Assembly (NCBI RefSeq): GCF_022829545.1
Contig: NZ_JAKSYM010000410.1
Coordinates: 1 to 64,000, forward strand
Source of the DNA: Methylobacterium sp. J-030
GTDB lineage: Bacteria; Pseudomonadota; Alphaproteobacteria; Rhizobiales; Beijerinckiaceae
DNA: 64,000 nt
Direction of reading: 5' to 3'
Of the stretch, positions 5,101 to 49,013 are shown piece by piece. Each line of letters starts with the position of its first letter. Positions within the stretch are counted from its first letter, which is position 1. The notes beneath the pieces were generated by a model. That model saw nothing but the letters and a program-made list of their open reading frames with translations, had not been told where the DNA came from and did not search any database. The position numbers and the translations under genes were made by a program.

Positions 5101-7029
5101 TTCTTCGACGTGAATTCCCTGGCCGGCCTGCGGGTCGAGCTGTCCGACATCTTCCACCGCTCGCACGAGACCGTGTTCCGGCACGTCCGCGAGGGCCGGA
5201 TCGACGGGCTGCGCATCGACCACATCGACGGCCTGGCCGACCCGCTGGGCTACGCGCGGGCGCTGCAGGCGGCGGTCGGGCCGGGCTTCTACGTGGTGGT
5301 GGAAAAAATCCTGGAGCCGGGGGAGCGGCTGCGGCCCTGGCCGGTGGCCGGGACCACGGGCTACGACGTGCTCAACCAGCTCGACGGGATCCTGGTCGAC
5401 AAGACCCGGCGCGGGAAGGTCGAGCGGCTCTACACCTGGGCCACCGGCTTCGACGAGCCCTACGGCTTCCAGCTCCGCGCCGCCAAGGCGGAGATCCTCG
5501 AGATCAGCTTCGCGAGCGAACTGGAGGTGCTGACCTCCGATCTCAAGGAGGTCGCCGATGCCGACCGGCGCACCCGCGACTTCACCGTCAACGCCCTGCG
5601 CCGGGCGCTGATCGAGATCATCGCGCGCTTTCCCACCTACCGGAGCTACCTGCCGGCGGAGCTGGAGGAGGGCGAGGTCGAGCCGGAGGATGTCCGCCTG
5701 ATCGAGGGCGCGGTCGCCAAGGCCAAGCGCTGGTCGAGCCTGCCCGATCGCTCGGTCCACGACTTCGCCGCCGAGGTCCTGCTCGGGCGGATCGAGACGG
5801 TCGGACCGGGCCGGCCGGATCCGCGGGTGGTGCTGCGCTTCCGCCGCCGGTTCCAGCAGCTCACCGGCCCGGTCATGGCCAAGAGCCTGGAGGATACGCT
5901 GTTCTACCGGTACAGCTGCCTGCTCGGCCTCAACGAGGTCGGCGGCGATCCGGGCGAGTACGGCATCGACGCGGAGCATTTCCACGACCTGCAGGTCGCC
6001 CGCGCCCGGGACTGGCCGAACGCCATGATCACCACGGCGACCCACGACACCAAGCGCGGCGAGGATGCCCGCACCCGGCTGCTCGCCCTCTCGGAGATCC
6101 CCGAGGAATGGGCCGGCGCCTGGGACCTGTGGCAGCGGACGGCCGGACCGCACCTCGCCCGGATCGACGGCGAGCCGGCCCCCGACGCCAACGACCAGTG
6201 GATGTTCTTCCAGGGAATCCTCGGCGCCTGGCCGCTCGAACTTCTGGAGCGGGACGAGCCCGGGGCGATCGAGGATTTCCGCGATCGGCTGATCGCCTAC
6301 GGCGAGAAGGCCATGCGCGAGGGCAAGCGCCGGTCGAGCTGGGTCAATGTCGACGCGGTCTACGAGGGCGCGGTCAAGAAGCTCTTTTCCGCGCTGATCG
6401 CCCCGGGCTCGAATTTCTTAAGCGAGCTCCGGCCCTTCGCCCGGCGGCTCGCCCATCTCGGCATGCTGGCGAGCCTCGGCCGGACGGTCCTGAAATGCAC
6501 CCTGCCGGGCCTGCCCGACACCTACCAGGGCACGGAGATCTGGGATTTCTCGTTCGTCGATCCCGACAACCGCCGGCCGGTGGATTACCCGGCGCTGGAA
6601 CGGATGCTCGAACAGGGCGGCGAACCGGCGGCCCTGCTGGCCGACTGGCCGGACGGGCGGGTGAAGCAGGCGACGCTCACGCGGCTCCTCACCGAGCGGG
6701 CCGAGCGCCCGGACTTCTACGCCAGCGCCGCTCACGAGCCGGTCGACGCAACGGGTCCGCGAGCCGGCAGCGTCATCGCCTATAGGCGGACCGATCCTGG
6801 CCAGGAAAGCGGCGACCTGTTCGTGGCGGTGCCGCGGCTCTTCGCGGGCCTCGTCGGCGAGGCGGTCTGGTCGGGCGAGGCGTTTGCGGGCACCCGGGTC
6901 GATCTCGGGGCCGGGACACGCTGGCGGGATCTCGCGACGGGGCGGGTCGTGGTGAGCGAAGGGGAGGGGGCCGACCTCGGCGACCTCCTGCGCGCGCTGC
7001 CCTACGTGGTGCTGCGGCGGGAGGCGTGA
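2122..7029 (+). CDS. malQ-treY: fused 4-alpha-glucanotransferase / malto-oligosyltrehalose synthase
   Basis: One 1635-residue polypeptide joins two enzymes. Residues 1 to about 690 are MalQ (GH77), which shuffles alpha-1,4-glucan segments. Its motifs include GLAAQLYGLRSATNIGIG, IRIDHAFQLARLYL (nucleophile D459), IAEDLGTAPEGF (E507) and TTHDLPTFVGWW. From about residue 704 a complete TreY (GH13) begins at STYRLQF. It converts the reducing end of maltooligosaccharides to a trehalosyl unit, with IVPNHMG, DGLRIDHIDGLADP (D1033), YVVVEKILEPGERL (E1061), TATHDTKRGEDARTR and DTYQGTEIWD. The GTG start overlaps the treZ stop (GTGA). The reading frame is open further upstream, but that is inside treZ. 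No frame break separates the halves, so this is a true fusion. TreY's product feeds TreZ upstream. Confidence 0.92.
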   Translation: MSALEQLADLVGVAGGYTDAFGKPVETSLEVRRGLLAALGFAVDDEAAIAGSLADVERLRRGLIPPLLPVEARRSARVPVHPQNGVPHTLVWRLIDERGTAREGRANPQGSDPGFELPPLTPGYHRLIVQAGQTRTEAWVIAAPQRCWRPRPYTEEGASDWGLAAQLYGLRSATNIGIGTYADAGEAAREAALRGAAFLGLSPVHALFGSDRTKISPYSPSSRLFLETLFIAPRSLPGLAGSRAEALLAERQDAITALREAALVDHQGVHDVLDPVLRALWADSPARAGTDAGFEHFRREGGADLEAHAIFEALSEHFRGQGAHWLGDWPEDYRRAGTEAVRAFAAGNAEAVGYHAWLQYLADRQLAEASAAALGTGMRVGLYRDLAVGADRGGSEIWSHPERFADKVSIGAPPDLLAPKGQNWGLPAFDPLAMERDGLAAFRALVQANMRHAGAIRIDHAFQLARLYLIPLGQGAQAGAYVAMPFEPMLAVLRLESHRNKCLVIAEDLGTAPEGFSDALMRAGVLSYRILAFEREADGRFKAPSAYPRDALTAITTHDLPTFVGWWRGVDSDTRQSLGLYDQERAEAERAERVVERRRLAEALAAEQLIPSAEPPEAAPFEAAARYLARAPAMLTAVQYEDVVSELAQANVPGSTEGYPNWRRKLDRDLADIAAPGGPLAKLAAALSSEARGPRSGTARLAAPPPRSTYRLQFHKEFTFADAGRIVPYLKTLGISHIYASPLQKARPGSTHGYDIVDHGAINPELGGEEDFIRFSETLHAHGLKLLLDIVPNHMGVGGSDNPWWLSVLEWGSLSPYADAFDIDWQRLGAGRNLVIPFLGDRYGEALEKGTLELKFDAETGAFSVWHYEHQLPIRPLSYPTILNRVIAAIGAVDDDTTAELLAISERLRAMAIDADETRRKGFPEEAEGLKRRLAEIYGVSPLIQEATASTLALLNGFKGRPDSFGPLHRLLEAQAYRLAHWRVASSDINYRRFFDVNSLAGLRVELSDIFHRSHETVFRHVREGRIDGLRIDHIDGLADPLGYARALQAAVGPGFYVVVEKILEPGERLRPWPVAGTTGYDVLNQLDGILVDKTRRGKVERLYTWATGFDEPYGFQLRAAKAEILEISFASELEVLTSDLKEVADADRRTRDFTVNALRRALIEIIARFPTYRSYLPAELEEGEVEPEDVRLIEGAVAKAKRWSSLPDRSVHDFAAEVLLGRIETVGPGRPDPRVVLRFRRRFQQLTGPVMAKSLEDTLFYRYSCLLGLNEVGGDPGEYGIDAEHFHDLQVARARDWPNAMITTATHDTKRGEDARTRLLALSEIPEEWAGAWDLWQRTAGPHLARIDGEPAPDANDQWMFFQGILGAWPLELLERDEPGAIEDFRDRLIAYGEKAMREGKRRSSWVNVDAVYEGAVKKLFSALIAPGSNFLSELRPFARRLAHLGMLASLGRTVLKCTLPGLPDTYQGTEIWDFSFVDPDNRRPVDYPALERMLEQGGEPAALLADWPDGRVKQATLTRLLTERAERPDFYASAAHEPVDATGPRAGSVIAYRRTDPGQESGDLFVAVPRLFAGLVGEAVWSGEAFAGTRVDLGAGTRWRDLATGRVVVSEGEGADLGDLLRALPYVVLRREA

Positions 7030-10735: not shown

Positions 10736-14010
<3,275 letters not shown>

Positions 14011-14014
<4 letters not shown>

Positions 14015-16296
14015 CGGCGATCGACGAGACCTTCGCAGGACGGGCCGACCCGGAAGCGGGAGCGGCGCGGCATGCGGACGTCCCGGGCTCCGGCGGCGCC
14101 GCGGCGGCCCCGAGCGTCCACCCGGACGCGATCGCGTCCCTGATGGGGGCGAGCCACGGCGATCCCTTCGCGGTGCTCGGCCCTCACCGGGTCGGGCCGC
14201 AGGCCTGGGAGGTCCGCGCCGTTCTGCCGGAAGCGCGCTCCGCCACCCTGGTGATGGACGGCCGCACCGCGCCGTTCGAGAAGCGCCACCCGGACGGGTT
14301 CTTCGTCGCCCGGGTCGAGGGCGAGCACCGGCCCCTCTACGAGATCGAGGTCGAGTCCTGGGACGGGTCGAAGCGCCGTCGCTACGATCCCTATGGCTTC
14401 GGCTCCTCGATCGAGCAGTATGACGTGGCCGCGCTCCGCGAGGTCGGCACCAACCTCGTCCAGCGGATCCTCGGCGCCCAGTCGGGCCAGCTCGACGGGA
14501 TCGACGGCTTCCGCTTCGCCGTCTGGGCGCCCAATGCCCGCAAGGTCAGCGTGGTCGGCGACTTCAACGACTGGGACGGGCGGCGCCACCCGATGCGCCT
14601 CTGGCAGGACGGCGGCATCTGGGAGCTGTTCGTCCCCGGGCTCACGGCCGGGGTGCGCTACAAGTTCGAGATCCGCGGCCCCGACGGGTCGCTGATCCCG
14701 CTCAAGGCCGACCCGGTCGCCTTCGCGGCCCAGCACCCGCCCGAGACCGCCTCGGTCACGCACGGGGCCGGCGAGTTCGACTGGCGCGATTCCGGCTGGA
14801 TGAGCACTCGCGGCGCCAAGGACCCGCGCCACGCGGCGATCTCGGTCTACGAGGTCCATCTCGGCTCCTGGGCGCGGGTGCCCGAGGAGGGCAACCGCTA
14901 CCTGACCTACCGGGAGCTGGCCTCCCGGCTGATCCCCTACGTCAAGGATATGGGCTTCACCCATATCGAGATGCTGCCGATCACCGAGTTCCCGTTCGAC
15001 GGCTCCTGGGGCTACCAGCCGGTGTCGCTGTTCGCGCCGACGAGCCGCTTCGGCAGCCCCGAGGACTTCGCCGTCTTCGTGGACGCCGCCCACGAGGCCG
15101 GCATCGGCGTGCTGCTCGACTGGGTGCCGGGCCACTTCCCGCTGGACGCCCACGGCCTCGGCCTGTTCGACGGCACGCATCTCTACGAGCACGCCGACCC
15201 GCGCCAGGGCTTCCACCAGGATTGGGGCACCTACATCTACAATTTCGGACGGACCGAGGTGGCGACCTTCCTGGCCGCCAACGCCCGGTTCTGGCTGGAG
15301 CACTACCACCTCGACGGCCTGCGCGTGGATGCCGTCGCGTCGATGCTCTACCTCGACTACTCGCGCCGCCAGGGCGAGTGGATCCCGAACCGCTACGGCG
15401 GCAACGAGAACCTCGACGCCATCGACTTCCTGCGCAAGACCAACGAGGCGACCTACAGCCACGCCCCGGGCACGATCACGGTGGCGGAGGAATCGACCTC
15501 CTGGCCGGGCGTCTCGCACCCGACCTATACGGGCGGGCTGGGCTTCGGCTTCAAGTGGAACATGGGCTGGATGCACGACACCCTGCATTTCATGCAGGAG
15601 AATCCGATCCACCGCCGCTACCACCACCACAACCTGACCTTCGGACTGCTCTACGCCTTCTCAGAGAATTTCATCCTGCCGCTGTCCCACGACGAGGTGG
15701 TGCACGGGAAGGGCTCGCTGCTCGGCAAGATGCCGGGCGACCGCTGGCAGAAATTCGCGAATCTCCGGGCCTATTACGGCTTCATGTGGGGGCATCCCGG
15801 CAAGAAGCTGCTGTTCATGGGCGGTGAGTTCGGCCAGGAGCGGGAGTGGAACCACGACCACAGCCTGGACTGGCACCACTTGGAGGATCCCCTGCACAAG
15901 GGCGTCCAGAGCGTGGTGCGGGACCTGAACCATCTCTACGTCTCGACGCCGGCGCTCTACAGCCGCGACGTGGAGCATACCGGCTTCCAGTGGCTGGTGG
16001 CGGACGATCAGGACAACAGCGTGATCGCCTGGGCGCGCAAGGGGGCTAAACCCGGCGAGGTCGCGATCGTGGTGTCGAACTTCACGCCGGTGCCGCGGGA
16101 GAGCTACCGGATCGGCGTGCCGCAGAAGGGCTTCTACCGCGAGGCGTTCAACTCGGATGCCGGTGTGTACGGCGGCTCGAACCTGGGCAATGCGGGTGGG
16201 AGCCACACCGACGATCAGGCGAGCCACGGCCAGGGACAGAGCCTGTCGCTCACCCTGCCGCCGCTGGCGACGATGATCTTCCTGCTGGAGGGGTGA
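14011..16296 (+). CDS. glgB: 1,4-alpha-glucan branching enzyme
   Basis: GlgB introduces alpha-1,6 branches into glycogen. The 761-residue protein has the N1 and N2 beta domains (MGASHGDPFAVLGPH; FAVWAPNARKVSVVGDFNDWDG), then the GH13 barrel with EVHLGSW, LDGLRVDAVASMLYLDYSR (nucleophile D440) and TVAEESTSWPGV (E493). The D-to-E spacing of 53 equals that of the E. coli enzyme (D405/E458). SHDEVVHGKGSL and GHPGKKLLFMGGEFGQ are also present. ATG 14011 overlaps the treS-mak stop by four bases. A G+C hairpin follows the stop. It branches glucan made both by GlgE and by GlgA, which converges from the other side. Confidence 0.95.
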
Positions 16297-35646: not shown

Positions 35647-36846
35647 ATGGACGCACGTCGCAGCGACAGCTTCAAGAGCGCCGAGCCGATCGGGGCCGGC
35701 GCGGCCCTCGCCGCCGCACCGCCCGTTTCGGCACCGAAGCCGCGACGTCGGGCGCGGATCATCCTGCCGGTCGTCGGGCTGCTCGCGCTCGGCGGGGCCG
35801 GGACCTATGGCTGGCACTGGTGGACCATCGGGCGTTTCCTTGAGGTCACCGACGACGCCTATCTCCAGTCCGACAAGGTCACGGTGGCGCCGCGCATCGC
35901 CGGCATCGTCGCCGCGGTGATGGTCGGCGACAACCAGCCGGTGAAGGCCGGAGACGTGGTCGCCCGCCTCGACGACCGATCCTACCGGGTCCAGCTCAAG
36001 CAGGCCGAGGCCGAGGTCGACAAGGACAAGGCGCAGATCCTCGGCGTCGCCGCGGCGATCGTCCAGCAGCAGGCGCAGGTCGCCTCGTCCCGGGCCGACC
36101 TCGCCAATGCCGAGGCCGCGCTGACCTTTTCCGGGCAGGAATACACCCGCTACCAGAACCTGCTGCAGACCGGCTCCGGCACGGTCCAGCGCCAGCAGCA
36201 GGCGGATGCCGACCTGCGGCAGCGCCACGCCGCCCGCGACAAGGCCGCCGCCTCCCTCGACGCCGCGCAGAAGCAGATCGACAGCCTGAAGGCGCTCGAA
36301 GCCAGCACCCGGGCGAGCCTGGAGGGCGCCGAGGCCAAGGTCGAGGGCGTGAAGCTCGATCTCAGCTACACCATCATCCTGGCGCCGATCGACGGCGTGG
36401 CCGGCGACCGGGCGCTGCGGGTCGGCCAAGTGGTCTCTCCCGGCACCGGCCTCCTGACCCTCGTGCCGATGAGCCGCGACATCTACTGCGTGGCGAACTT
36501 CAAGGAGACCCAGACCGGCCGCATGGTGGAAGGTCAGCACGTCACCTTCACGGTGGATGCGCTCGGCGACCACGCGTTCCAGGGCCGGATCGAGAGCTTC
36601 TCTCCCGGTACGGGCTCGCAGTTCGCGCTGCTGCCGCCGGAGAACGCCACCGGCAACTTCACCAAGGTGGTGCAGCGCGTGCCCGTGCGCGTCGCCCTCG
36701 ATCCCACGGACCCGCTGGTTGCGCGCCTGCGCCCCGGCCTGTCGGTGGAGGCCACGGTCCACACCGCCGACCCGGTGGAACCGGCGAGCCCCGCCCGGCC
36801 GAAGCCCGCCCCGACGGCCCTCGTCAGCGAGGCCCTGCCCCGATGA
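35647..36846 (+). CDS. EmrA/HlyD-type membrane fusion protein
   Basis: This periplasmic adaptor connects the DHA2 pump to an outer-membrane channel. One membrane helix lies at about residues 38-58 (IILPVVGLLALGGAG). It is followed by the biotinyl-lipoyl half (VAPRIAGIVAAVMVGDNQPV), a long coiled-coil hairpin rich in Ala/Gln (about 115-235) and the second lipoyl/beta-barrel half (YTIILAPIDGVAGDRALRVGQ, NFKETQTGRMVEGQ). The Pro-rich tail is PASPARPKPAP. 399 residues. The stop overlaps the pump gene by four bases. Regulation by the divergent TetR protein is likely; the substrates are unknown. Confidence 0.9.
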   Translation: MDARRSDSFKSAEPIGAGAALAAAPPVSAPKPRRRARIILPVVGLLALGGAGTYGWHWWTIGRFLEVTDDAYLQSDKVTVAPRIAGIVAAVMVGDNQPVKAGDVVARLDDRSYRVQLKQAEAEVDKDKAQILGVAAAIVQQQAQVASSRADLANAEAALTFSGQEYTRYQNLLQTGSGTVQRQQQADADLRQRHAARDKAAASLDAAQKQIDSLKALEASTRASLEGAEAKVEGVKLDLSYTIILAPIDGVAGDRALRVGQVVSPGTGLLTLVPMSRDIYCVANFKETQTGRMVEGQHVTFTVDALGDHAFQGRIESFSPGTGSQFALLPPENATGNFTKVVQRVPVRVALDPTDPLVARLRPGLSVEATVHTADPVEPASPARPKPAPTALVSEALPR

Positions 36847-38414
36847 GTTCGGCTCCGCCCGTGCCCGACGCCAAGGCGAGCGCCCGGGACTGGCTCGCCG
36901 TGTTCGGCGCGATCCTCGGCGCCTTCACGGCGATCCTCGACATCCAGATCACCAACGCCTCGCTCGCCGACATCCAGGGGGCGCTCGGCGCCTCCACGGA
37001 GGAGGGGAGCTGGATCTCGACCGCCTACCTGATGGCCGAGATCATCGTGATCCCGCTCACCGGCTGGCTCGCCTCGGTGATCGGCCTGCGCCGCTACCTC
37101 GCGGTGAACACAATGCTGTTCACCGCCTTCTCGCTGGCCTGCGCGCTCTCGACCACCCTGAGCCAGATGATCCTGTTCCGGGCCGGCCAGGGCTTTACCG
37201 GCGGCGTGCTGATTCCCACGGCCATCGTGATCGTGCGCACGCGCCTGCCGAAGAGCCAGCAGGCGGTCGGCATCGCGCTGTTCGGGCTCACCGCGACCTT
37301 CGCCCCGGCGATCGGCCCGACGGTGGGCGGCTGGCTCACCGACAACCTGTCCTGGCACTACATCTTCTACCTGAACCTGATCTTCGGTCCGATCGCGGCC
37401 GCGATCCAGCTCGGCGCCTTCGAGAAGGCCCCGGCGCGCTGGGGGGAATTGCTCAAGGGCGACTGGATCGGCATCGGCCTGATGGCGACCGGGCTGCCGG
37501 CCCTGACTTTCGTGCTGGAGGAGGGGCAGCGCAAGGACTGGTTCGGATCCCCGGTGATCGTCGAGGCGAGCTGGCTCGCGGTGGCCGGCATTGCCGGGTT
37601 CATCATCCGCGAGCTGACGGCGGCGAGGCCGTTCATCAACCTGCGGGTGCTGGCCAACCGCTCGGTCGGGGGGGCCTGCGTGCTGATGACCGTGCTCGGC
37701 GCGGTCTCGTACGGGTCGATCTACATCATCCCGGTCTACTGCGCGCAGATCCAGGGCTACAACGCCGAGCAGATCGGCACCGTGGTGATGTGGTCGGGCC
37801 TGCCGCAATTGCTGCTGTTCCCGATGATGCCGTTCATCATGCGCGCCGTGGATGCGCGGCTCCTCGTCGTCACCGGCACGCTGTTCTTCATCGCGAGCTG
37901 CTGGATCAATGTCGGCCTGACCCACGATGTCGGCGCCGACCAGTTGATCCTGCCGCAGGTGATGCGCGCCATCGGCCAGCCGCTGTTCACGATTCCGCTC
38001 TCGCAGCTCTCGACCGTGGGCCTGAGCCCGCGCGACACCGCCGACGCCTCGGCTCTGTCCAACATGATGCGCAACCTCGGCGGCTCGATCGGCATCGCGC
38101 TCCTCTCGACCATGATCGACCGGCGCGAGCACTTCCACTTCTCGGTGCTGGCCGAGGCGATCACCGTCAACGCCACCCGCACGCAGGACCGGCTCGCGGC
38201 GCTCGCCGCCGGGATGCACAGCCACATCGCCGACCCGCTGACCGCCAAGGGGACGGCGCTCGGGATGCTGGCGGCCCAGGTGCGCCGGGAGGCGACCGTG
38301 ATGGCCTATGCGGACGGGTTCTGGCTGGTGGGGGTGAGCCTCGTGGCGAGCCTCGCCGTGGTGGCGATCCTCAAGAAGCCGCAGCGCGCCGCCGCACCGG
38401 TCGAGGCGCACTGA
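36843..38414 (+). CDS. DHA2-family MFS efflux pump (EmrB-like)
   Basis: A 523-residue drug:proton antiporter with about 14 membrane helices. Diagnostic parts are TAILDIQITNASLADIQGAL (motif D1), EEGSWISTAYLMAEIIVIPL, GLRRYLAVNT (motif A), RAGQGFTGGVLIPTAI (motif B) and FGLTATFAPAIGPTVGGWL (motif C). It exports toxic hydrophobic compounds together with the adaptor upstream. The last 60 residues (QDRLAALAAGMHSHIADPLT, then YADGFWLVGV) and some bases after the stop recur, decayed, at 42245-42480 beyond the A+T-rich island. Confidence 0.92.
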   Translation: MSSAPPVPDAKASARDWLAVFGAILGAFTAILDIQITNASLADIQGALGASTEEGSWISTAYLMAEIIVIPLTGWLASVIGLRRYLAVNTMLFTAFSLACALSTTLSQMILFRAGQGFTGGVLIPTAIVIVRTRLPKSQQAVGIALFGLTATFAPAIGPTVGGWLTDNLSWHYIFYLNLIFGPIAAAIQLGAFEKAPARWGELLKGDWIGIGLMATGLPALTFVLEEGQRKDWFGSPVIVEASWLAVAGIAGFIIRELTAARPFINLRVLANRSVGGACVLMTVLGAVSYGSIYIIPVYCAQIQGYNAEQIGTVVMWSGLPQLLLFPMMPFIMRAVDARLLVVTGTLFFIASCWINVGLTHDVGADQLILPQVMRAIGQPLFTIPLSQLSTVGLSPRDTADASALSNMMRNLGGSIGIALLSTMIDRREHFHFSVLAEAITVNATRTQDRLAALAAGMHSHIADPLTAKGTALGMLAAQVRREATVMAYADGFWLVGVSLVASLAVVAILKKPQRAAAPVEAH

Positions 38415-38836
38415 GACCCGTTCCGGTCTGTCCAGCACGGACGGAGGCGATCGATCGCCCCGGCGCCGCGTTCCGGGCGGCACGACATTCGAAAGCCGAG
38501 CCACGGCCGTCGCTGCGCCAAACGGCGGGGTCCCCGTGAGGCGAACGGGTGGGCTTTGCCGTTGCACCGGCTCCGACCGACGGCGGCGAGGCAACTGCCG
38601 GTGTCGAGGGGCCTGTCGCGAGATCAGCGTCTGTTGCGCCGGGCTCTGGATCGGATCCGCCAAATGATCTTGGGCTCATCCGCGCGATCACCGTCGATTT
38701 TCCAAGACAAACATCGTTAAGCGTTGACTCGCAGGCGCGGACTATGCATTAGGATGCTCGGTCGCTGACGTTTTGTGTCAGGAATCAATCTTCTTACACC
38801 GCTTGATTTCCAATCTATTAGAATAGATACCGCATC
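38415..38836. other. intergenic transition into the A+T-rich island
   Basis: Up to about 38690 the base composition is that of the chromosome, with no ORF I would defend. From about 38700 the sequence becomes A+T-richer and leads into the glycosyltransferase gene. The short dyad AGACC/GGTCT straight after the emrB stop may end that operon. No ribosome-binding site is visible before the ATG at 38837. Confidence 0.4.
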
Positions 38837-40753
38837 ATGGTGCAGGAAAAAATTTATTCGCGAGATATCTTCAAGCCATACGCCGCGTATGTCGAACAAT
38901 CGGCGCATAAAATTCGAACCTACTTCAATGCGACCAAACCAGCGCGCCCGATCGGTCGAAAAATCCTTGTCGATGGCCCAGTGGCCGGGACATATAGTCT
39001 CGCGATTGTAAACAGACACTTTTCACTGGAACTGATGCGGCTTGGCTTCGATGTCTATTTGACTCAGAACGAAGGCCCCGATCCACAGACCGATATCTAT
39101 TTTCAATCCTATCCAGAGCTCGCGGAGAAATACATCAGCCGCGAGCGGGTGCCGTCATTGTCGTTCGATATTCATACAAAGAACGACTGGCCGATTCAGG
39201 CAAGTCCACGCCTCGCACCCGTATTGACCGCCCATTGTTATGCCTGGGAAGAAAGCATATTTCCGGTATCGGTCGCCTCAGAGTTGGAAAAATTCGACGC
39301 TATATTTTGTACTTCTCAATATACGATCGATGCCTTGCGTTGCAGCGGCTATACCAAGCCGACATTCTACGTCGGGAACGGGGTCGAACATATCGAGCCC
39401 ACGATCAACCGGGCGGCGCCGAAGAGCCCGCGCGACAGCCGCCGCGTTCATTTTGTCCATGTCTCCTCAGGCCTGCCACGGAAGGGAATGCGCGAGGGCC
39501 TGGCTGCCTTTCTTGAAGAATTCCGCGACGTCGACGACGTCCATTTGACGATCAAGACGCACCATAGCTTCGATAACGAGCTTTATGAACTTGTCGACAA
39601 TTTGGATCCGACAGAGCGCAGCAAGGTCACATTCGACGACAGTTACATGTCGTCCGTCGCCATCCGGGATCTGATCGCAGCTGCGGATTGCTGCTTCCTT
39701 CCGAGCCACGGGGAGGGCTTTTGCCTGCCCGCCGCTGAAGCGATGCGGCTCAGAACCCTGGTGTGCACGACCGATTCGGGTGGAAACAGAGAGTTTTGCA
39801 CACCCGAGACCTGCATTCTGATACCGACCCGTTTCGTGCCTTCGCGATCGGCGATCGGGCAGGGCAGATCCGCTTGGCTGCAAGCGAGCCGCAGCGATCT
39901 CCGGGCCGGTCTCCGGCGAGCCTACGCGCTGTCGAAGCGCTCTGATCACAGCCTGCAGCGCAGGGCCTATCACCGCATCAAAAAGTTCACGTGGCTGCAG
40001 GCGGCGAAGAAATTCGTCGCCGGCGTGAATGCTCTTTCGACAGGGGCTCAGCCCCTAAAAAATGGACTGTCGAAGCAACGCATCTGTCTCATAAGCACAT
40101 TCAATCAAAGATGCGGCATAGCAACGTATTCGGCGGCCTTGCAGGACGCCATGGAAAAGGCTGGATCCGCTCCGTCCGTCATCATTACGGAAGATATTGC
40201 AAAATCTTTGTGCACAAAACCCGACGATTCGAAAATCATTCGGCTTTGGGACCGCACGAGCGAGAGTATCGATAAACTGATCCGCTACGCTCAGTCTCAC
40301 GAAATTGGATCGACTTTCATCATCCAGCACCATCCCGCAATTTTCGGTTGGAACGATCTGACAAAACTATGCGATGGACTCAAGGAATTTTCAAATGACA
40401 TCGCGATCGAGCTTCATTCCACGGACGGCAAAATTCACCAGTTGGAATCATTTGTTAAGAAAATCTCACCTTATGCAAAAATTGTCGTGCACAACAATAT
40501 AGACTATCTAAAAGTGGTCGCTCAATCACCGAGCACCGATAGAATCTTTCTATTCCCCCACCCGACATCCGTTCATCAAGGACGCCCCTTACAGCCAAAG
40601 CATAAATTTTCTCTCTTTACGTTCGGTTTTTGTTGTCCGCACAAGCGGTTCGAGGATGCTTTCGCGATAGCCCATGAACTCAAGCTCAGACATCGCGATG
40701 TGAAGCTCAGAGTTTTTACCGCTATTGATGGCTCAGTACAGAAAAACATATAA
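38837..40753 (+). CDS. two-domain glycosyltransferase (GT4-like), cut short by an in-frame stop
   Basis: The first GT-B domain covers about residues 45-395 (VAGTYSLAIVNRHFSLELMR, FCTSQYTIDALRCSGY, HVSSGLPRKGMREGLAAF, DCCFLPSHGEGFCLPAAEAMR). The last block is the E-x7-E donor-binding signature of GT4 enzymes. A second domain begins at about 415 (ICLISTFNQRCGIATYSAAL, FTFGFCCPHKRFEDAFAI), but TAA at 40751 ends the frame after 638 residues. The same frame continues to 41233 with the missing second-domain C-terminus. A first-domain sugar transferase may still be made. Composition is much A+T-richer than the flanks, which points to transfer. Likely role: surface polysaccharide or glycoprotein glycosylation. 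Confidence 0.75.
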   Translation: MVQEKIYSRDIFKPYAAYVEQSAHKIRTYFNATKPARPIGRKILVDGPVAGTYSLAIVNRHFSLELMRLGFDVYLTQNEGPDPQTDIYFQSYPELAEKYISRERVPSLSFDIHTKNDWPIQASPRLAPVLTAHCYAWEESIFPVSVASELEKFDAIFCTSQYTIDALRCSGYTKPTFYVGNGVEHIEPTINRAAPKSPRDSRRVHFVHVSSGLPRKGMREGLAAFLEEFRDVDDVHLTIKTHHSFDNELYELVDNLDPTERSKVTFDDSYMSSVAIRDLIAAADCCFLPSHGEGFCLPAAEAMRLRTLVCTTDSGGNREFCTPETCILIPTRFVPSRSAIGQGRSAWLQASRSDLRAGLRRAYALSKRSDHSLQRRAYHRIKKFTWLQAAKKFVAGVNALSTGAQPLKNGLSKQRICLISTFNQRCGIATYSAALQDAMEKAGSAPSVIITEDIAKSLCTKPDDSKIIRLWDRTSESIDKLIRYAQSHEIGSTFIIQHHPAIFGWNDLTKLCDGLKEFSNDIAIELHSTDGKIHQLESFVKKISPYAKIVVHNNIDYLKVVAQSPSTDRIFLFPHPTSVHQGRPLQPKHKFSLFTFGFCCPHKRFEDAFAIAHELKLRHRDVKLRVFTAIDGSVQKNI

Positions 40754-41233
40754 TATAGCAACTTTCTATATAATCTCAGGAATCAGCTCGGCCTGCGCAA
40801 GGAAATCGATTTAGAGTTCGGATTCAAGCCGATATCCGACGTCCTTGCTGCCTCGCGGGAGGCAACAGTCGCGCTCTTTTGCTATGCCGACCTCAGCGAA
40901 GGAGGAAGCGGTGCCGTGCGCGTTCCCTTGAGTTGCGGCATACCGACAATCACCTCGCGCTCATCGATCTTTTCGGATCTTACGGGCATATGCCACCAAA
41001 TCGATACACACGAGACAGTCAGCGCGGCAGATCATATCGAAGATCTTGTATCAGACGCCGGCAAGAGGAAGAAATTAATTGACAAACAATCGGACTACAT
41101 AAATTTTTCAACCTGGGGCAACCATTCATCGAGAATGATTGGGATTTTGGACGGCGGACATTCCAAGAATACAGCCGCATCAGCCCATATTTTGAATCAA
41201 AAAACCATCCCGCTCGAGCAGATTTCAATATGA
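40754..41233 (+). pseudogene. severed C-terminal part of the glycosyltransferase
   Basis: The codons straight after the TAA, in the same frame, read YSNFLYNLRNQLGLRKEIDL, then LFCYADLSEGGSGAVRVPLS, CGIPTITSRSS and on to the stop at 41233. The EGGSGAVRVPLSCG block is the donor-site region of the second GT domain. There is no frameshift, only one stop codon. A GTG at 40916 could allow separate translation, but the piece would not fold alone. It overlaps the DUF4214 gene by four bases, so the original operon was tightly coupled. Confidence 0.75.
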
Positions 41234-42183
41234 CCCGCAGCGAATTCAGGTCGATATCGTTGTCATATTTCGATAAAGAAGTCGATCATATTGCTTGGAT
41301 TAGACAAAACGTTTTCCTTGACATGGGAGCAGATTGGATAGCCACCAGAAAGCGAAACTATAAACTGCGGACCGCTCGCATGGTGTTCAATCATTTGTCC
41401 CGTGTTTGGCCAGGAACAATCTTTCTTGGAAATCCGGCACGGATCGTGAGCCGGCATCATACAAGTCGCGATTATCTTAAAACAGTTCCTGAAGACATGT
41501 TCATCAATGCACTGTACGTCGTTTTGCTGGGACGAATGCCGGATGAAACCGGGCGCGCGCATTACGAGAAGGAACTTCGTCGGGGTGAATCCCGAGATGC
41601 CTTAATTGACAGCATAATGCGGTCACAGGAGTTTAAGCTTATCAACAAAAAGAGCCTCTTGTCGCCTGAGGAAGGCGACCTGATAAATTTTCGACGCTTC
41701 GTCCAAGACGACTTTATGATCTACAGAACGCAGAGTGCGTCAGTCGGTTTCTTCGATCGCCCGAACACTGCGATCGACGGCCTGTCGACGTCCGCTTGGA
41801 GTTCACTCCTTCATGTGGCCGGCGATGACACGAGGCCGTTTTTGTTTCCAGGGCTCATGCTGATCGGACGTTATGATGCCGATAGGAACTTTATCTGCGA
41901 CAAAGATTGGATCGTCTACGGCCCCAAGATCAGCCTGCCAAATGGCGTTTATGATGTCCTGATCGATGTCGAGGCGCCACAGGATTTTTGCTACAAATTC
42001 GATGTCAGCATCAATGAAGGCGCGGAGGTCTTATTCTCCACCTTTCTCGTCGGCAATGTGCGAGCGAGTTTCCGCATCGTTGTTCCGGAAGACGCACAGA
42101 GCTTCGAGACGCGGATCCTTAATGTTCATCACAACGAGTCCATCATGAGGTTCAAGAATATTGGGCTGCGGCTCTGTCAGTGA
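41230..42183 (+). CDS. DUF4214 domain-containing protein
   Basis: The 317-residue protein has a DUF4214 core at about residues 90-140 (FINALYVVLLGRMPDETGRAHYEK..RRGESRDALIDSIMRSQEF). This domain occurs in secreted or surface-associated proteins and next to glycosyltransferases; its molecular role is not established. The N-terminal 80 residues and the C-terminal 170 (beta-rich, e.g. GVYDVLIDVEAPQDFCYKFD) match nothing I recognise; the latter could be a carbohydrate-binding fold. No signal peptide is seen. The ATG overlaps the glycosyltransferase stop (ATGA). It shares that gene's A+T-rich composition. Confidence 0.7.
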   Translation: MTRSEFRSISLSYFDKEVDHIAWIRQNVFLDMGADWIATRKRNYKLRTARMVFNHLSRVWPGTIFLGNPARIVSRHHTSRDYLKTVPEDMFINALYVVLLGRMPDETGRAHYEKELRRGESRDALIDSIMRSQEFKLINKKSLLSPEEGDLINFRRFVQDDFMIYRTQSASVGFFDRPNTAIDGLSTSAWSSLLHVAGDDTRPFLFPGLMLIGRYDADRNFICDKDWIVYGPKISLPNGVYDVLIDVEAPQDFCYKFDVSINEGAEVLFSTFLVGNVRASFRIVVPEDAQSFETRILNVHHNESIMRFKNIGLRLCQ

Positions 42184-42244
42184 GTTCGCCGGCCCGGGCG
42201 TAATCGGGCGTGTCGTTCTCTCCGGGACAGACGGCATGACCGAT

Positions 42245-42480
42245 TTGTGGCGCCCGCGGTCGAGGGACAGGCTGACCGCGCCGATTCAATCGCCGCCAAG
42301 GGCGCGGTGCTCGGGGTGCTGGCCGCCCGGATCTGCCGGGAGGCCAGTGTCGTGGCCCGTGCGGACGGGTTCCGTCTGGTAGGGTAAGCCGCCGCCGGGG
42401 TGCTGATCCTCAGGACGCCCCCGGCGCGCCGCCGGACCTGTGGCGGCGCCAGGACGGGCGGAGGTTCGCCGGCCCCGTCA
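42245..42480 (+). pseudogene. decayed copy of the 3' end of the emrB-type pump gene
   Basis: The bases at 42285-42390 translate to AAKGAVLGVLAARICREASV, then ADGFRLVG and a stop. The intact pump reads TAKGTALGMLAAQVRREATV and ADGFWLVGV. Upstream RSRDRLTA parallels TRTQDRLAA. After the premature stop, the next frame codons (AAAGVLILRTPP) still echo the pump's VVAILKKP. Similarity appears to run past the pump's stop codon into non-coding sequence up to about 42480. It is therefore a duplicated segment, not just a paralogous protein. It lies at the right edge of the A+T-rich island. Confidence 0.65.
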
Positions 42481-42556
42481 TGGTTTGGAGCGATCCGGGA
42501 TCGTCGCGGGTGCGGGACAATGCCCCGAAGTCGGGCGTCGCCGGAGGGATGAGGTT

Positions 42557-43549
42557 CTAATCGATGATCTCATCGGCCCGGGCGAGGAGCGCCGGCGCGA
42601 TGGTCAGGTCCAGATTCTCCGCGACCGTCGCGTTCAGGATGAAGCTCAGCCGATTCGGCCCTTGGATCGGAAGATCGCTCGGCTTGGCGCCGTGCAGGAT
42701 GCGATTCACGTAGTCGCCCGCCTGCTGGAACCAGACGGCCTCCTCGGACCCGTAGGAGGCCAGTCCTCCCGCCGTCACGAAGTAACGGAACGGGTAGAGG
42801 GCCGAGATCCGATAGCGGGCCGCCAGGGACGTGATCAGGCTGCGATTCGAGAGGGTGAAGGCGCCCGGCGCGACCAGAAGCCCGACCTGACCCAGGGCGC
42901 TCAGGCGCGCGAAGGTCGGCTCCAGATCCGCCCGCTCGCGCAGCGGTATGATCAGGGGCTCCAGCCCCAGGGACCGGCTGACCTGCTCGATCGCCTCCGC
43001 CAGCGCCAGGGAGACCGGGCTGCTCGCCCCGTGCTGCAGGAAGGCGATCCGTTTCACATCCGGAGCGATCTCCCGGAGCAATTCCACCCACTTGCCGCCC
43101 ACGGACGGCTCCAGCACCGTGAAGCCGGTCATGTTGCCCCCCGGCTTCTGCATCGTCGAGACGATGCCCTGCGCGACCGGATCGCTGACCTGCAGGAAGA
43201 CCACCGGCGTTTCCTGCGCGCGGCGGCGCAGGGCCAGGGCCACCGCGGTCGAGCGGCTGACGATGACGTCCGGCTCCGGTTGCAGGACCTCGGGCAGCAC
43301 CGTTTCGATCCGGGCCGGATCGCTGCCCACGGAGGCGAAGGTCAGCGTGAGGTTCTGTCCCGCCTCCCAGCCGTATTTGCGAAGGGATTCTTTCAGGACC
43401 CGCTCGTTTTCGACGAAGTAGGGATCGCTCTTCGGCATGGGGAAGAGCACGGTCACGCGGCGAAACCGTTCAGGGGCAGCGCAGGTGGCCGACCGCCCCG
43501 AAACCAGGACAAGACCCGCGACAAGCCCGATGATGTTCCGCCGCCGCAT
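42557..43549 (-). CDS. ABC transporter substrate-binding protein (PF04392-type)
   Basis: The 330-residue protein has an N-terminal signal (RRRNIIGLVAGLVLVSG) and a periplasmic-binding-protein-I-like fold of the 'ABC_sub_bind' family: RVTVLFPMPKSDPYFVENER, DPVAQGIVSTMQKPGGNMTGFT, KWVELLREIAPDVKRIAFL, GLASYGSEEAVWFQQAGDYVNRIL. The start at 43549 is fixed by GAGGCG just upstream; the open frame extends 36 codons further without protein character. Members bind amino acids or aromatic compounds, but many are orphan. No permease or ATPase is adjacent. Confidence 0.82.
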   Translation of the reverse strand: MRRRNIIGLVAGLVLVSGRSATCAAPERFRRVTVLFPMPKSDPYFVENERVLKESLRKYGWEAGQNLTLTFASVGSDPARIETVLPEVLQPEPDVIVSRSTAVALALRRRAQETPVVFLQVSDPVAQGIVSTMQKPGGNMTGFTVLEPSVGGKWVELLREIAPDVKRIAFLQHGASSPVSLALAEAIEQVSRSLGLEPLIIPLRERADLEPTFARLSALGQVGLLVAPGAFTLSNRSLITSLAARYRISALYPFRYFVTAGGLASYGSEEAVWFQQAGDYVNRILHGAKPSDLPIQGPNRLSFILNATVAENLDLTIAPALLARADEIID

Positions 43550-43725
43550 GATTCGCCTCTGCTTGACGGCTGCTTGCCGCCAAGGACGCGCGATTTGAAA
43601 TGGTTCGGGCGCGATGGCAACATGCGGTCGCGCGGGTCGGCCGGCAGCTTGGCACAACCGTCAGACCTGGACCGCGTTCGACCGCGCCGTGACGGAGGCC
43701 CCCGGCGAGCCGTATCGGCGCGTGC

Positions 43726-44790
43726 CTACCGGCCCGGCAACCCGTGGACGATCGGGAAGAACGTGTCCTTCCAGTCCTTGGGCTCGGTCTTGATGGTCTT
43801 CATCGCGTAGAAGTGCCGGGCCTGGAGCATGATGCCGTAGGGCGTGGTCGAGAAGTTGGTCCCGGGCTGCTTCATGATCGCCACCAGGGTCTCGGGCGGG
43901 GTCTTCTCGTTGGTGGCCGCCACGTAGTCCTTGGCGGCCTGGAGCGGATCCTTGGCGATCTCAGCATCGGCCTCGTCGATGGCGGCCACGATGGCGGCCG
44001 CGAGCTTCGGGTTGCGGGTGTACCAGCCGGTCCGGGCGTAGAAGATCGCGTTGCTCACCGGCTCGCCGACCAGCTCGTAGGAGTTCAGCACCGCGTGGAT
44101 CGCCGGGTCCTGCAATTCGCGCTGCTGGAACGGCGGCAGGGAGAAGTGGCTGTTGACGTCGTTGTGGGGGCTGGCCAGGGCCGCCACCGCGTCGGGATGG
44201 CCGAGCTGGACGGTGAGCGGGTCGAGCTTGGTCGCGTTCTCGGGGCCGAACGCCTTCTTGGCGGCGATCTGCAGCAGCACCGCCTGGGACGAGACCTTCA
44301 CGGAGGGCAGGGCGATCTTGTCCTTGCCGGAAAAATCCTTGAGCGTCTTCACGTCCGGGTCGCGGGTGAGCAGCAGCATCGGCGTGGTGCCGACGCCGCA
44401 CAGGCCCTTCACGTCGCCCCGGGTGCGGTCGTTGAGCAGCAGCATGTTGGTCGAGCCGCTGTCGACGATGTCGATGTTGCCCGAGAGCAGGGCGTCGTTG
44501 CCGGCGGCGCCGCTCGTCAGGTTGACCCATTCCACCGCCACGTCCCCGAGGCCCGCGGCCTTGGCGTGCTTCTCGATGAGCTTGTGCTGCTCGGCGAGCA
44601 CGGCGGGGAGGTAGACGAAGCCCGGCTGCCGGCTGATCCGGACCCTGGCATCGTCGGCCCGGGCAGGGACGACGAGGATCTGGGCGACGAGCGCCAGACC
44701 GGCCGGCAGGAGGGCGGCTCCTCGCCGGAGGAGGCGGCGGAACCGCGACGAACCCGGCCGCGACGAGCCCATACGCGACGCACGCACCAT
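43726..44790 (-). CDS. SsuA/NitT/TauT-type substrate-binding protein
   Basis: A periplasmic binding protein of the nitrate/sulfonate/taurine family. An arginine-rich n-region and hydrophobic stretch (GAALLPAGLALVAQILVVPARA) form the signal, with cleavage near PARADD. The body has VRISRQPGFVYLPAVLAEQH, VNLTSGAAGNDALLSGNIDI, IALPSVKVSSQAVLLQIAAK and the C-terminal TEPKDWKDTFFP seen in aliphatic-sulfonate proteins. ATG 44790 is preceded by AGGGAG. 354 residues. There are no ssuB/ssuC homologues beside it, so the partners must be elsewhere. Confidence 0.82.
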   Translation of the reverse strand: MVRASRMGSSRPGSSRFRRLLRRGAALLPAGLALVAQILVVPARADDARVRISRQPGFVYLPAVLAEQHKLIEKHAKAAGLGDVAVEWVNLTSGAAGNDALLSGNIDIVDSGSTNMLLLNDRTRGDVKGLCGVGTTPMLLLTRDPDVKTLKDFSGKDKIALPSVKVSSQAVLLQIAAKKAFGPENATKLDPLTVQLGHPDAVAALASPHNDVNSHFSLPPFQQRELQDPAIHAVLNSYELVGEPVSNAIFYARTGWYTRNPKLAAAIVAAIDEADAEIAKDPLQAAKDYVAATNEKTPPETLVAIMKQPGTNFSTTPYGIMLQARHFYAMKTIKTEPKDWKDTFFPIVHGLPGR

Positions 44791-44937
44791 GACACTTCTC
44801 CCTGCGGCCCGGCGGCTTCGTCTCCGATCCGGGCTCGTCGTTGCGCGCGAGTGGACAGCCTCGCACAAGCTTGCGCAAGAGCCCGTCTGCACGCTCGGCT
44901 AACGCTGAAGTCGCATTATCACGCGATCGAGAGCGTC

Positions 44938-45305
44938 ATGCCGGACGGTGGACTCCGCATCTCGGAGAACGATGCGGCGGCCTCGATGATCGCGGGGGCG
45001 CGGGTGAGAATCGGCATCGGGGCGAAGCTTCGCACCATCACGGCGGCCGCGCTGGTCGGCGTTATCGCAGTCTCGGGCGTCGGACTCGTCAGCCTGAACT
45101 CCCAGGTCGCGCAGGACCGGATGGCCAAGACCCGCAACCTCGCGGATGCGGCCTACGGCGGCGTCCTATCTCGAGGGCAAGGAGCGGGCCGGGCACCTGT
45201 CGAAGGCGGGCGGCCCAGGGCGCCGCGATCAGGGCCCTCAAGGGCCTGCGCTACGACGGCCAGGAATATTTCTGGATCAACGAGCGGCCTGAGCGCCCGT
45301 CCTGG
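44938..45305 (+). pseudogene. remnant of a methyl-accepting chemotaxis protein
   Basis: The first frame gives RIGIGAKLRTITAAALVGVI, SVGLVSLNS-like membrane helix and RMAKTRNLADAAYGG, the start of a Cache-type chemoreceptor. Near 45160 the frame shifts (SYLEGKERAGHLSKAG), and near 45210 it shifts again (AAIRALKGLRYDGQEYFWIN). The last block is the conserved single-Cache motif. The gene then stops at the mosaic repeat that begins at about 45305. The HAMP and signalling domains are absent. At least two frameshifts plus truncation make this a pseudogene. Confidence 0.7.
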
Positions 45306-48920: not shown

Positions 48921-49013
48921 TGGCGGAAGCGGATGGGAATCGAACCCACCGTACGCTGTTGGCGTACCGCTGGTTTTGAAGACCAGGAGGGCCACCAGAC
49001 CCCGTTCGCCTCC
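48921..49013 (-). tRNA. selC: tRNA-Sec (anticodon TCA)
   Basis: On the minus strand a 93-base sequence starts GGAGGCGA and ends ATCCGCTTCC-G-CCA, with the CCA encoded. The anticodon arm is CTGGTCTTCAAAACCAG (loop with TCA). A long extra arm has the 6-bp stem GTACGC/GCGTAC, and the T arm contains GGTTCGATTCC. The acceptor stem pairs over about eight bases. The long extra arm, TCA anticodon and long acceptor identify a selenocysteine tRNA. A G-U pair occurs in the acceptor stem. Confidence 0.9.

What the first reader, a model, noticed from the sequence alone, without database searches (positions are those of the whole stretch)
38760..42480. A+T-rich glycosyltransferase/DUF4214 island held between two copies of the emrB tail
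The composition changes abruptly at about 38,700 and again at about 42,180. To the left is intact emrB. At 42245-42480 is a decayed copy of its last 45-60 codons and apparently some bases after its stop. Because similarity extends beyond the coding region, a duplicated target or recombination between tandem copies fits better than a chance paralogue. No integrase or transposase is present, so the mechanism of entry is open.
Basis: partly seen in the sequence, partly recalled or inferred. Interest (0 to 1): 0.62.

Follow-up and report, generated by a model that had tools for sequence, protein, structure and literature searches.

The report
Sugar-gene insert with duplicated emrB end
In a Methylobacterium chromosome, two foreign-looking genes of a kind linked to sugar polymers sit behind a drug-pump gene, next to a decayed second copy of that gene's end, which is the scar of an ordinary DNA insertion that one related species also carries in a much diverged form.

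Summary
An A+T-rich segment (GC 0.507, change points 38645 and 42162) with a GT4-type glycosyltransferase and a DUF4214 gene lies between intact emrB and a decayed copy of the emrB tail (42234-42449, 70% identity, E 2e-25; 0 of 1000 shuffles). Relatives show the empty site: of 13 other loci where emrB faces the same neighbour, 12 have no island and no detectable second tail. One species (G092, apparently Methylobacterium sp. E-005) has the island in the same place, with a more decayed remnant starting at nearly the same emrB position. Best reading: single-crossover integration of DNA carrying about 230 bp of emrB end; such partial duplications are documented in E. coli (PMC3240628, passages). 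Unexpected: the island genes differ between the two species six- to sevenfold more (dS 1.28-1.60) than the median of 35 neighbours (0.215), so the haplotypes may predate the species or have been exchanged; and the glycosyltransferase has a different premature stop in each. Ordinary mechanism, interesting history.

The parts
36843..38414 (+). intact emrB (DHA2 efflux permease), left flank
   Evidence: TIGR00711 369.2 bits, cut-off 230.2
38183..38414 (+). emrB tail, left (intact) copy of the duplicated segment
   Evidence: direct repeat with 42234-42449
38415..38836 (.). spacer between emrB stop and glycosyltransferase; GC 0.69 up to about 38700, then 0.46; its first 120 bases match G092 but not the flank of the right copy
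38837..40753 (+). GT4-type glycosyltransferase ORF, 638 aa, ended by TAA at 40751-40753
   Evidence: PF00534 41 bits and PF13692 40.5 bits, both over cut-off; frame continues afterwards
40754..41233 (+). remainder of the glycosyltransferase frame after the premature stop (end of the second half)
   Evidence: open to 41233 and aligned to G092; pN 0.249, pS 0.78; no Pfam match on its own
41230..42183 (+). DUF4214 protein, 317 aa, with a C-terminal predicted beta-sandwich resembling, among others, carbohydrate-binding modules
   Evidence: PF13946 42.1 bits, cut-off 23.2; low-confidence model and fold comparison
42184..42233 (.). junction piece between DUF4214 gene and remnant, no similarity to emrB upstream of the repeat
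   Evidence: 459 of 1000 shuffles reach the score
42234..42449 (+). decayed copy of the emrB tail (codons about 448-523)
42450..42556 (.). old downstream flank of emrB: both ends match the emrB-ABC spacer of G084, and the first 56 bases match the emrB-NMT1 junction of five relatives
42557..43657 (-). ABC-transporter substrate-binding protein gene, also present in this slot in G034, G084, G092
   Evidence: PF04392 117.2 bits
43726..44892 (-). NMT1-like substrate-binding protein gene, right border of the variable slot
   Evidence: PF13379 25.7 bits, cut-off 24.7; within 13-26 bp of emrB in 8 relatives

Best explanation
A DNA molecule carrying the glycosyltransferase and DUF4214 genes and about 230 bp of an emrB 3' end entered an ancestor of this Methylobacterium and integrated by a single homologous crossover (most simply a circle, or a circularised fragment) in the emrB tail. 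emrB kept a full tail on the left; the displaced original tail, cut off at the edge of the shared segment, stayed on the right with the old downstream flank and decayed. Shown: the repeat, the empty sites, an old flank behind the right copy, a nearly shared remnant edge in G092. Inferred: a circular donor, a single event, homology as the cause. The gene pair most likely serves a surface or exported polysaccharide (inferred from family and one relative's neighbourhood); its glycosyltransferase is interrupted by a stop in both genomes.
For: Repeat. Empty sites: 8 relatives with 13-26 bp between emrB and NMT1, 2 with 220-271 bp, 2 (G034, G084) with only the ABC gene; no second emrB tail in the five longer spacers tried (59 to 970 of 1000 shuffles as good). 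Right flank old: 42450-42505 against G084, G094, G098, G097 (0 of 1000 each), G043 and G017 (4 and 5 of 1000), and 42500-42553 against the far end of the G084 spacer (22, 0 of 1000). Left flank: among 19 relatives only G092 matches at 0 of 300 shuffles. G092: island in the same place, remnant score 37 (0 of 1000), aligned from emrB 38187 against 38183 here; the two remnants group 95/89 inside the clade of these species' emrB tails, 99/97. Precedent: partial duplications of 109-950 bp by single crossover of circles with shortened homology in E. coli (PMC3240628, passages).
Against: No donor or circular form was found; no match to the DUF4214 protein in 72,556 plasmid records. The old-flank match is short, and 11 of the 17 relatives tried do not show it (19 to 862 of 1000), among them G027 and G088, where emrB and NMT1 are adjacent; G034, left out, does not show it either (94 of 300). 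The left flank has marginal matches to G071, G084 and G067 (13-14 of 300). The emrB tail shows no clear foreign affinity (poorly resolved). Separate duplications in the two species are not rejected on this short alignment (AU p 0.27 and 0.29). rpoB+gyrB neither group nor separate the two genomes (p 0.507). The island genes diverge six- to sevenfold more than the median neighbour, which one insertion followed by plain vertical descent does not explain.
Confidence: 0.6

Rival explanations
1. Homology-facilitated illegitimate recombination: linear foreign DNA anchored by homology in the emrB tail, its other end joined illegitimately to a sister copy upstream of the crossover, duplicating the tail.
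For: Would give the same anatomy (inference); a mechanism of this type was proposed for displaced 3' ends in Vibrio T6SS arrays (PMC5361080, passages).
Against: Generally deletes about as much as it inserts and is rare (PMC3240628, passages); in that study the duplications came from single crossovers instead.
Confidence: 0.2
2. Tandem duplication of the whole emrB gene, followed by entry of the island into the second copy and loss of its first 447 codons or so.
For: Also leaves a tail with the old flank on the right.
Against: No second complete emrB in the fetched stretches of 19 relatives; needs more steps.
Confidence: 0.1
3. Separate acquisitions of diverged forms of the cassette in the two species (about history; not exclusive of the mechanisms above).
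For: dS 1.28 and 1.60, dN 0.165 and 0.204 for the island genes against dS 0.13-0.29 and dN at most 0.092 for 35 neighbours; divergence jumps at the emrB stop and drops at NMT1.
Against: Nearly the same remnant edge in both; remnants group together, though weakly. Exchange of whole old haplotypes through the flanks explains both.
Confidence: 0.2
4. Transposon or integrase-borne island with an unusually long target duplication.
For: Direct repeat at both ends.
Against: About 230 bp is far beyond usual target duplications (general knowledge); no inverted-repeat pair has one arm at each end of the insert; no tRNA at the ends; neither island ORF is an integrase or transposase.
Confidence: 0.03

Closest known systems
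Single-crossover integrants with partial duplication of the target gene, E. coli lacZ (PMC3240628, passages read)
   Same: One full copy and one shortened copy of a gene end flank the inserted DNA; duplicated length in the same range (109-950 bp there, about 230 bp here).
   Different: Here the event is natural and old, the right copy is decayed, and the donor is unknown.
Displaced 3' ends in Vibrio T6SS effector arrays and Rhs loci (PMC5361080, passages read)
   Same: A module inserted behind a homologous anchor is thought to leave old gene ends downstream.
   Different: Here the anchor is an efflux gene unrelated to the insert, and no toxin or immunity gene was recognised.
Polysaccharide locus of Neorhizobium lilium (L159)
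   Same: A relative of the glycosyltransferase (30%) followed by a gene sharing the C-terminal domain of the DUF4214 protein, among WcbI, GSCFA, glycosyltransferase, PMM and mannose-phosphate genes.
   Different: The partner has no DUF4214 match there; the locus is larger than a two-gene insert.

Membership tests
Single-crossover integrant with duplicated homology | Direct repeat of the target on both sides of the insert | tested here: met
Single-crossover integrant with duplicated homology | Single copy in genomes without the insert | tested here: met
   12 of 13 other loci with emrB facing NMT1 lack the island and a detectable second tail
Single-crossover integrant with duplicated homology | Original downstream flank behind the far copy | tested here: met
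   G084, G094, G098, G097 at 0 of 1000; but only about 100 bp, and 11 of 17 relatives tried do not match
Single-crossover integrant with duplicated homology | Circular donor carrying the homology | not testable with these tools
   no donor found
Integrase- or transposase-borne genomic island | Integrase/transposase gene, tRNA target or terminal inverted repeats | tested here: not met
   only the two island ORFs (and the frame after the stop) were searched for protein families
DHA2 / EmrB efflux permease (left gene) | TIGR00711 above its cut-off | tested here: met
   369.2 bits against 230.2
Glycosyltransferase family 4 type, two-domain form | GT group 1 domain above cut-off | tested here: met
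   PF00534 41 against 26.4, PF13692 40.5 against 27
Glycosyltransferase family 4 type, two-domain form | Complete second half in one reading frame | tested here: not met
   stop at 40751-40753 here, a different stop in G092; the L157 relative is open over 734 codons
DUF4214 (PF13946) | Domain above gathering score | tested here: met
   42.1 bits against 23.2
Carbohydrate-binding module (C-terminal domain of the DUF4214 protein) | CBM-type beta-sandwich | tested here: inconclusive
   mean pLDDT 55.7; blocks 57-86 for 221-317 but 35-45 for 191-220; CBM4/16/61 and beta domains of unrelated toxins and other proteins are mixed at Z 7.6-9.6 among the 50 rows shown

The most novel reading that the evidence does not exclude
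The gap between the convergent genes emrB and NMT1 is a variable slot in which old, strongly diverged haplotypes of a glycan cassette (with their insertion scar) are exchanged between Methylobacterium species by recombination in the conserved flanks, with repeated independent truncation of the same glycosyltransferase, as expected for a surface-variation locus under changing selection.
Probability: 0.35. Interest if true: 0.45.

Novelty: new member of a known kind. Interest (0 to 1): 0.3.

Why it matters
It is a clean natural example of gene acquisition without a recognised mobile-element gene, with the scar, the empty sites and a second carrier all at hand. The excess divergence of the cassette over its flanks makes a testable case for cross-species exchange of glycan-gene alleles in Methylobacterium. 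Otherwise it is ordinary genome flux.

Tried and rejected
Two species trees were wrong because loci of both strands were mixed; one search replaces them. Search for the DUF4214 protein on plasmids: none at E 1e-5. PADLOC: neither island protein matches at E 0.01, so no sign of a known defence system. Papers: no held paper has both DUF4214 and glycosyltransferase, none has both Methylobacterium and E-005; some searches gave listings in which no title concerns this locus, and none of those papers was opened. Lower codon bias alone as the cause of the high dS was considered: dN is raised by about as much as dS (dN/dS 0.13 in both island genes, median of 35 neighbours 0.13), so older divergence fits better, but no low-GC control gene was available. 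A separate origin of the two remnants was tested and is neither accepted nor rejected. That G034 or G084 lost the island by recombination between the two tails is not excluded. The 220-271 bp spacers of G071 and G103, the two longer spacers of G084 and the ABC-NMT1 spacer of G034 were checked for a second emrB tail: none. The fold comparison lists beta domains of several insecticidal and clostridial toxins beside carbohydrate-binding modules; at 3-17% identity this is a common sandwich fold and was not followed.

Full report
Observation. The window lies in a 6.92 Mb genome of 411 contigs. Behind emrB (36843-38414, TIGR00711 above cut-off) the base composition drops from GC 0.700 to 0.507 between 38645 and 42162. 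The segment holds a glycosyltransferase of the GT4 type (38837-40753) and a DUF4214 protein (41230-42183). GC3 is 0.59 in both, 0.97 in emrB. At 42234-42449 is a decayed copy of emrB 38183-38409: 162 of 230 columns identical, E 2e-25, score 90 against at most 35 in 1000 dinucleotide shuffles. Before 42234 there is no emrB similarity (459 of 1000 shuffles as good).

Relatives. Of 111 genomes of the genus, the window's own included, 40 have an emrB-like match at E 1e-100 or better. I fetched longer stretches for 19 of the 39 others, mostly the closest (the G088 stretch begins inside emrB at a contig edge; a twentieth stretch, G079, has no emrB). In 13 of the 19 the NMT1-like gene follows emrB in convergent orientation; in 6 it was not found in the stretch. 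Of the 13: 8 have 13-26 bp in between, 2 have 220-271 bp, 2 (G034, G084) have only the ABC substrate-binding gene, and 1 (G092) has island, remnant and ABC gene. The five longer spacers of the four genomes G071, G103, G034 and G084 hold no second emrB tail (59 to 970 of 1000 shuffles as good). So the empty site exists, with one tail. The island genes occur at ortholog level only here and in G092: DUF4214 protein 73%, glycosyltransferase 71%; the other 5 of 7 and 6 of 8 genomes with matches are at 29-44%, some over short stretches only. A scan of genome contigs found 12 relatives of the glycosyltransferase; the nearest is Methylobacterium sp. E-005, on a contig whose length (113,494) equals that of G092's contig; the next, a Beijerinckiaceae metagenome bin, likewise equals G079. 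In a sample of 298 genomes of the family the DUF4214 ortholog was found in 1, the window's own (G092 would have matched, so it was evidently not drawn). 72,556 plasmid records gave none.

The second carrier. In G092 the island lies at the same place and a remnant of emrB sits behind it: score 37 against at most 27 in 1000 shuffles, aligned from emrB position 38187 on, against 38183 in the window. In a tree of emrB tails the two remnants group (95/89), inside the clade of these species' emrB (99/97). The alignment is short, and trees that place each remnant with its own host's emrB are not rejected (p 0.27 and 0.29). A species tree of 23 genomes from rpoB and gyrB is nearly a star here; window plus G092 as sisters is neither supported nor rejected (p 0.507).

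Which copy is where. The sequence behind the right copy, 42450-42556, matches the emrB downstream spacer of G084 at both its ends (18 and 22, each 0 of 1000), with a roughly 300 bp element of imperfect inverted repeats lying between them in G084. Its first 56 bases also match the emrB-NMT1 junction of G094, G098, G097 (0 of 1000 each), G043 and G017 (4 and 5 of 1000). The other 11 of 17 relatives tried do not match (19 to 862 of 1000); six of these lack NMT1 behind emrB, but G027 and G088 have it adjacent. G034 and G092 were left out; they gave 94 and 26 of 300. The match to the window's own NMT1 end is weak (61 of 1000). For the left copy's downstream spacer only G092 of 19 relatives matches at 0 of 300; G071, G084 and G067 are marginal (13-14 of 300). 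So the right copy most likely stands at the old junction, and what follows the left copy belongs to the insert.

Mechanism. This is the anatomy of a single crossover between emrB and incoming DNA with about 230 bp of an emrB end. In E. coli conjugation experiments designed to catch homology-facilitated illegitimate recombination, 56 of 60 clones instead carried partial duplications (109-950 bp in the 14 sequenced), ascribed to single crossovers of circles with shortened homology (PMC3240628, passages read). A one-sided illegitimate event could give the same picture; it has been proposed for displaced gene ends in Vibrio (PMC5361080, passages read). Tandem duplication of whole emrB is possible but unseen. 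The donor is unknown.

History. Between window and G092, 38 genes in the compared stretch passed my filter (the frame at 11935-16293 is probably wrong). 35 have dS 0.131-0.291 (median 0.215) and dN 0.005-0.092 (median 0.028). The ABC gene has dS 0.463, dN 0.178; the DUF4214 gene 1.281 and 0.165; the glycosyltransferase 1.602 and 0.204. Identity is 0.94 at 38000-38199, 0.88 at 38200-38399, 0.64 at 38400-38599 and 0.97 again from 43757 in NMT1. Spacer 38412-38836 is 0.67 identical against 0.71-0.95 for other stretches outside the called genes that align over half or more of their length, the slot itself aside. dN/dS of the island genes (0.13) equals the neighbours' median (0.13), so older divergence is likelier than relaxed constraint: old haplotypes kept or exchanged through their flanks, or separate acquisitions. 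This is inference; a low-GC control gene was lacking.

Function. The glycosyltransferase frame is cut by a TAA at 40751 here and by a TAG at another place in G092; beyond each stop the frame is otherwise open, and its divergence shows past constraint on the protein. A relative in L157 is open over 734 codons. Sequencing error is not excluded. Four of the 12 loci have a downstream gene matching my profile of the DUF4214 protein; two of them (L156, L157) are members of that profile, so only L158 and L159, which match in the C-terminal domain alone, are independent (2 of 10). L159 lies among polysaccharide genes. The C-terminal domain is predicted as a beta-sandwich, like carbohydrate-binding modules among others (low confidence). 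A role in a surface or exported polysaccharide is the best guess; with the second half of the glycosyltransferase cut short the pair may be failing.

Verdict. A real, well-delimited insertion with a duplicated gene end; mechanism of a known kind; the divergence of the haplotypes is the part worth following.

Noticed in passing
window 40751-40753, and the glycosyltransferase of G092 (L156): Two species carry different premature stops in the same glycosyltransferase, each with an open frame behind it.
   Followed up: partly
window 48921-49013 (-): Selenocysteine tRNA gene predicted by ARAGORN, the only tRNA gene reported in the window.
   Followed up: no
L083 about 5936-6255 (G084, between emrB and the ABC gene): Roughly 300 bp element with long imperfect inverted repeats in the emrB-ABC spacer of G084.
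   Followed up: no
window 42557-43657: The ABC substrate-binding gene is itself patchy in the emrB-NMT1 slot (4 of 14 loci with emrB facing NMT1, window included), with dS 0.20-0.46 between the four species.
   Followed up: partly
window 44657-45106: The start of the NMT1 gene and its upstream spacer are only 66-85% identical to three relatives, although the rest of the gene is 91-98%.
   Followed up: no
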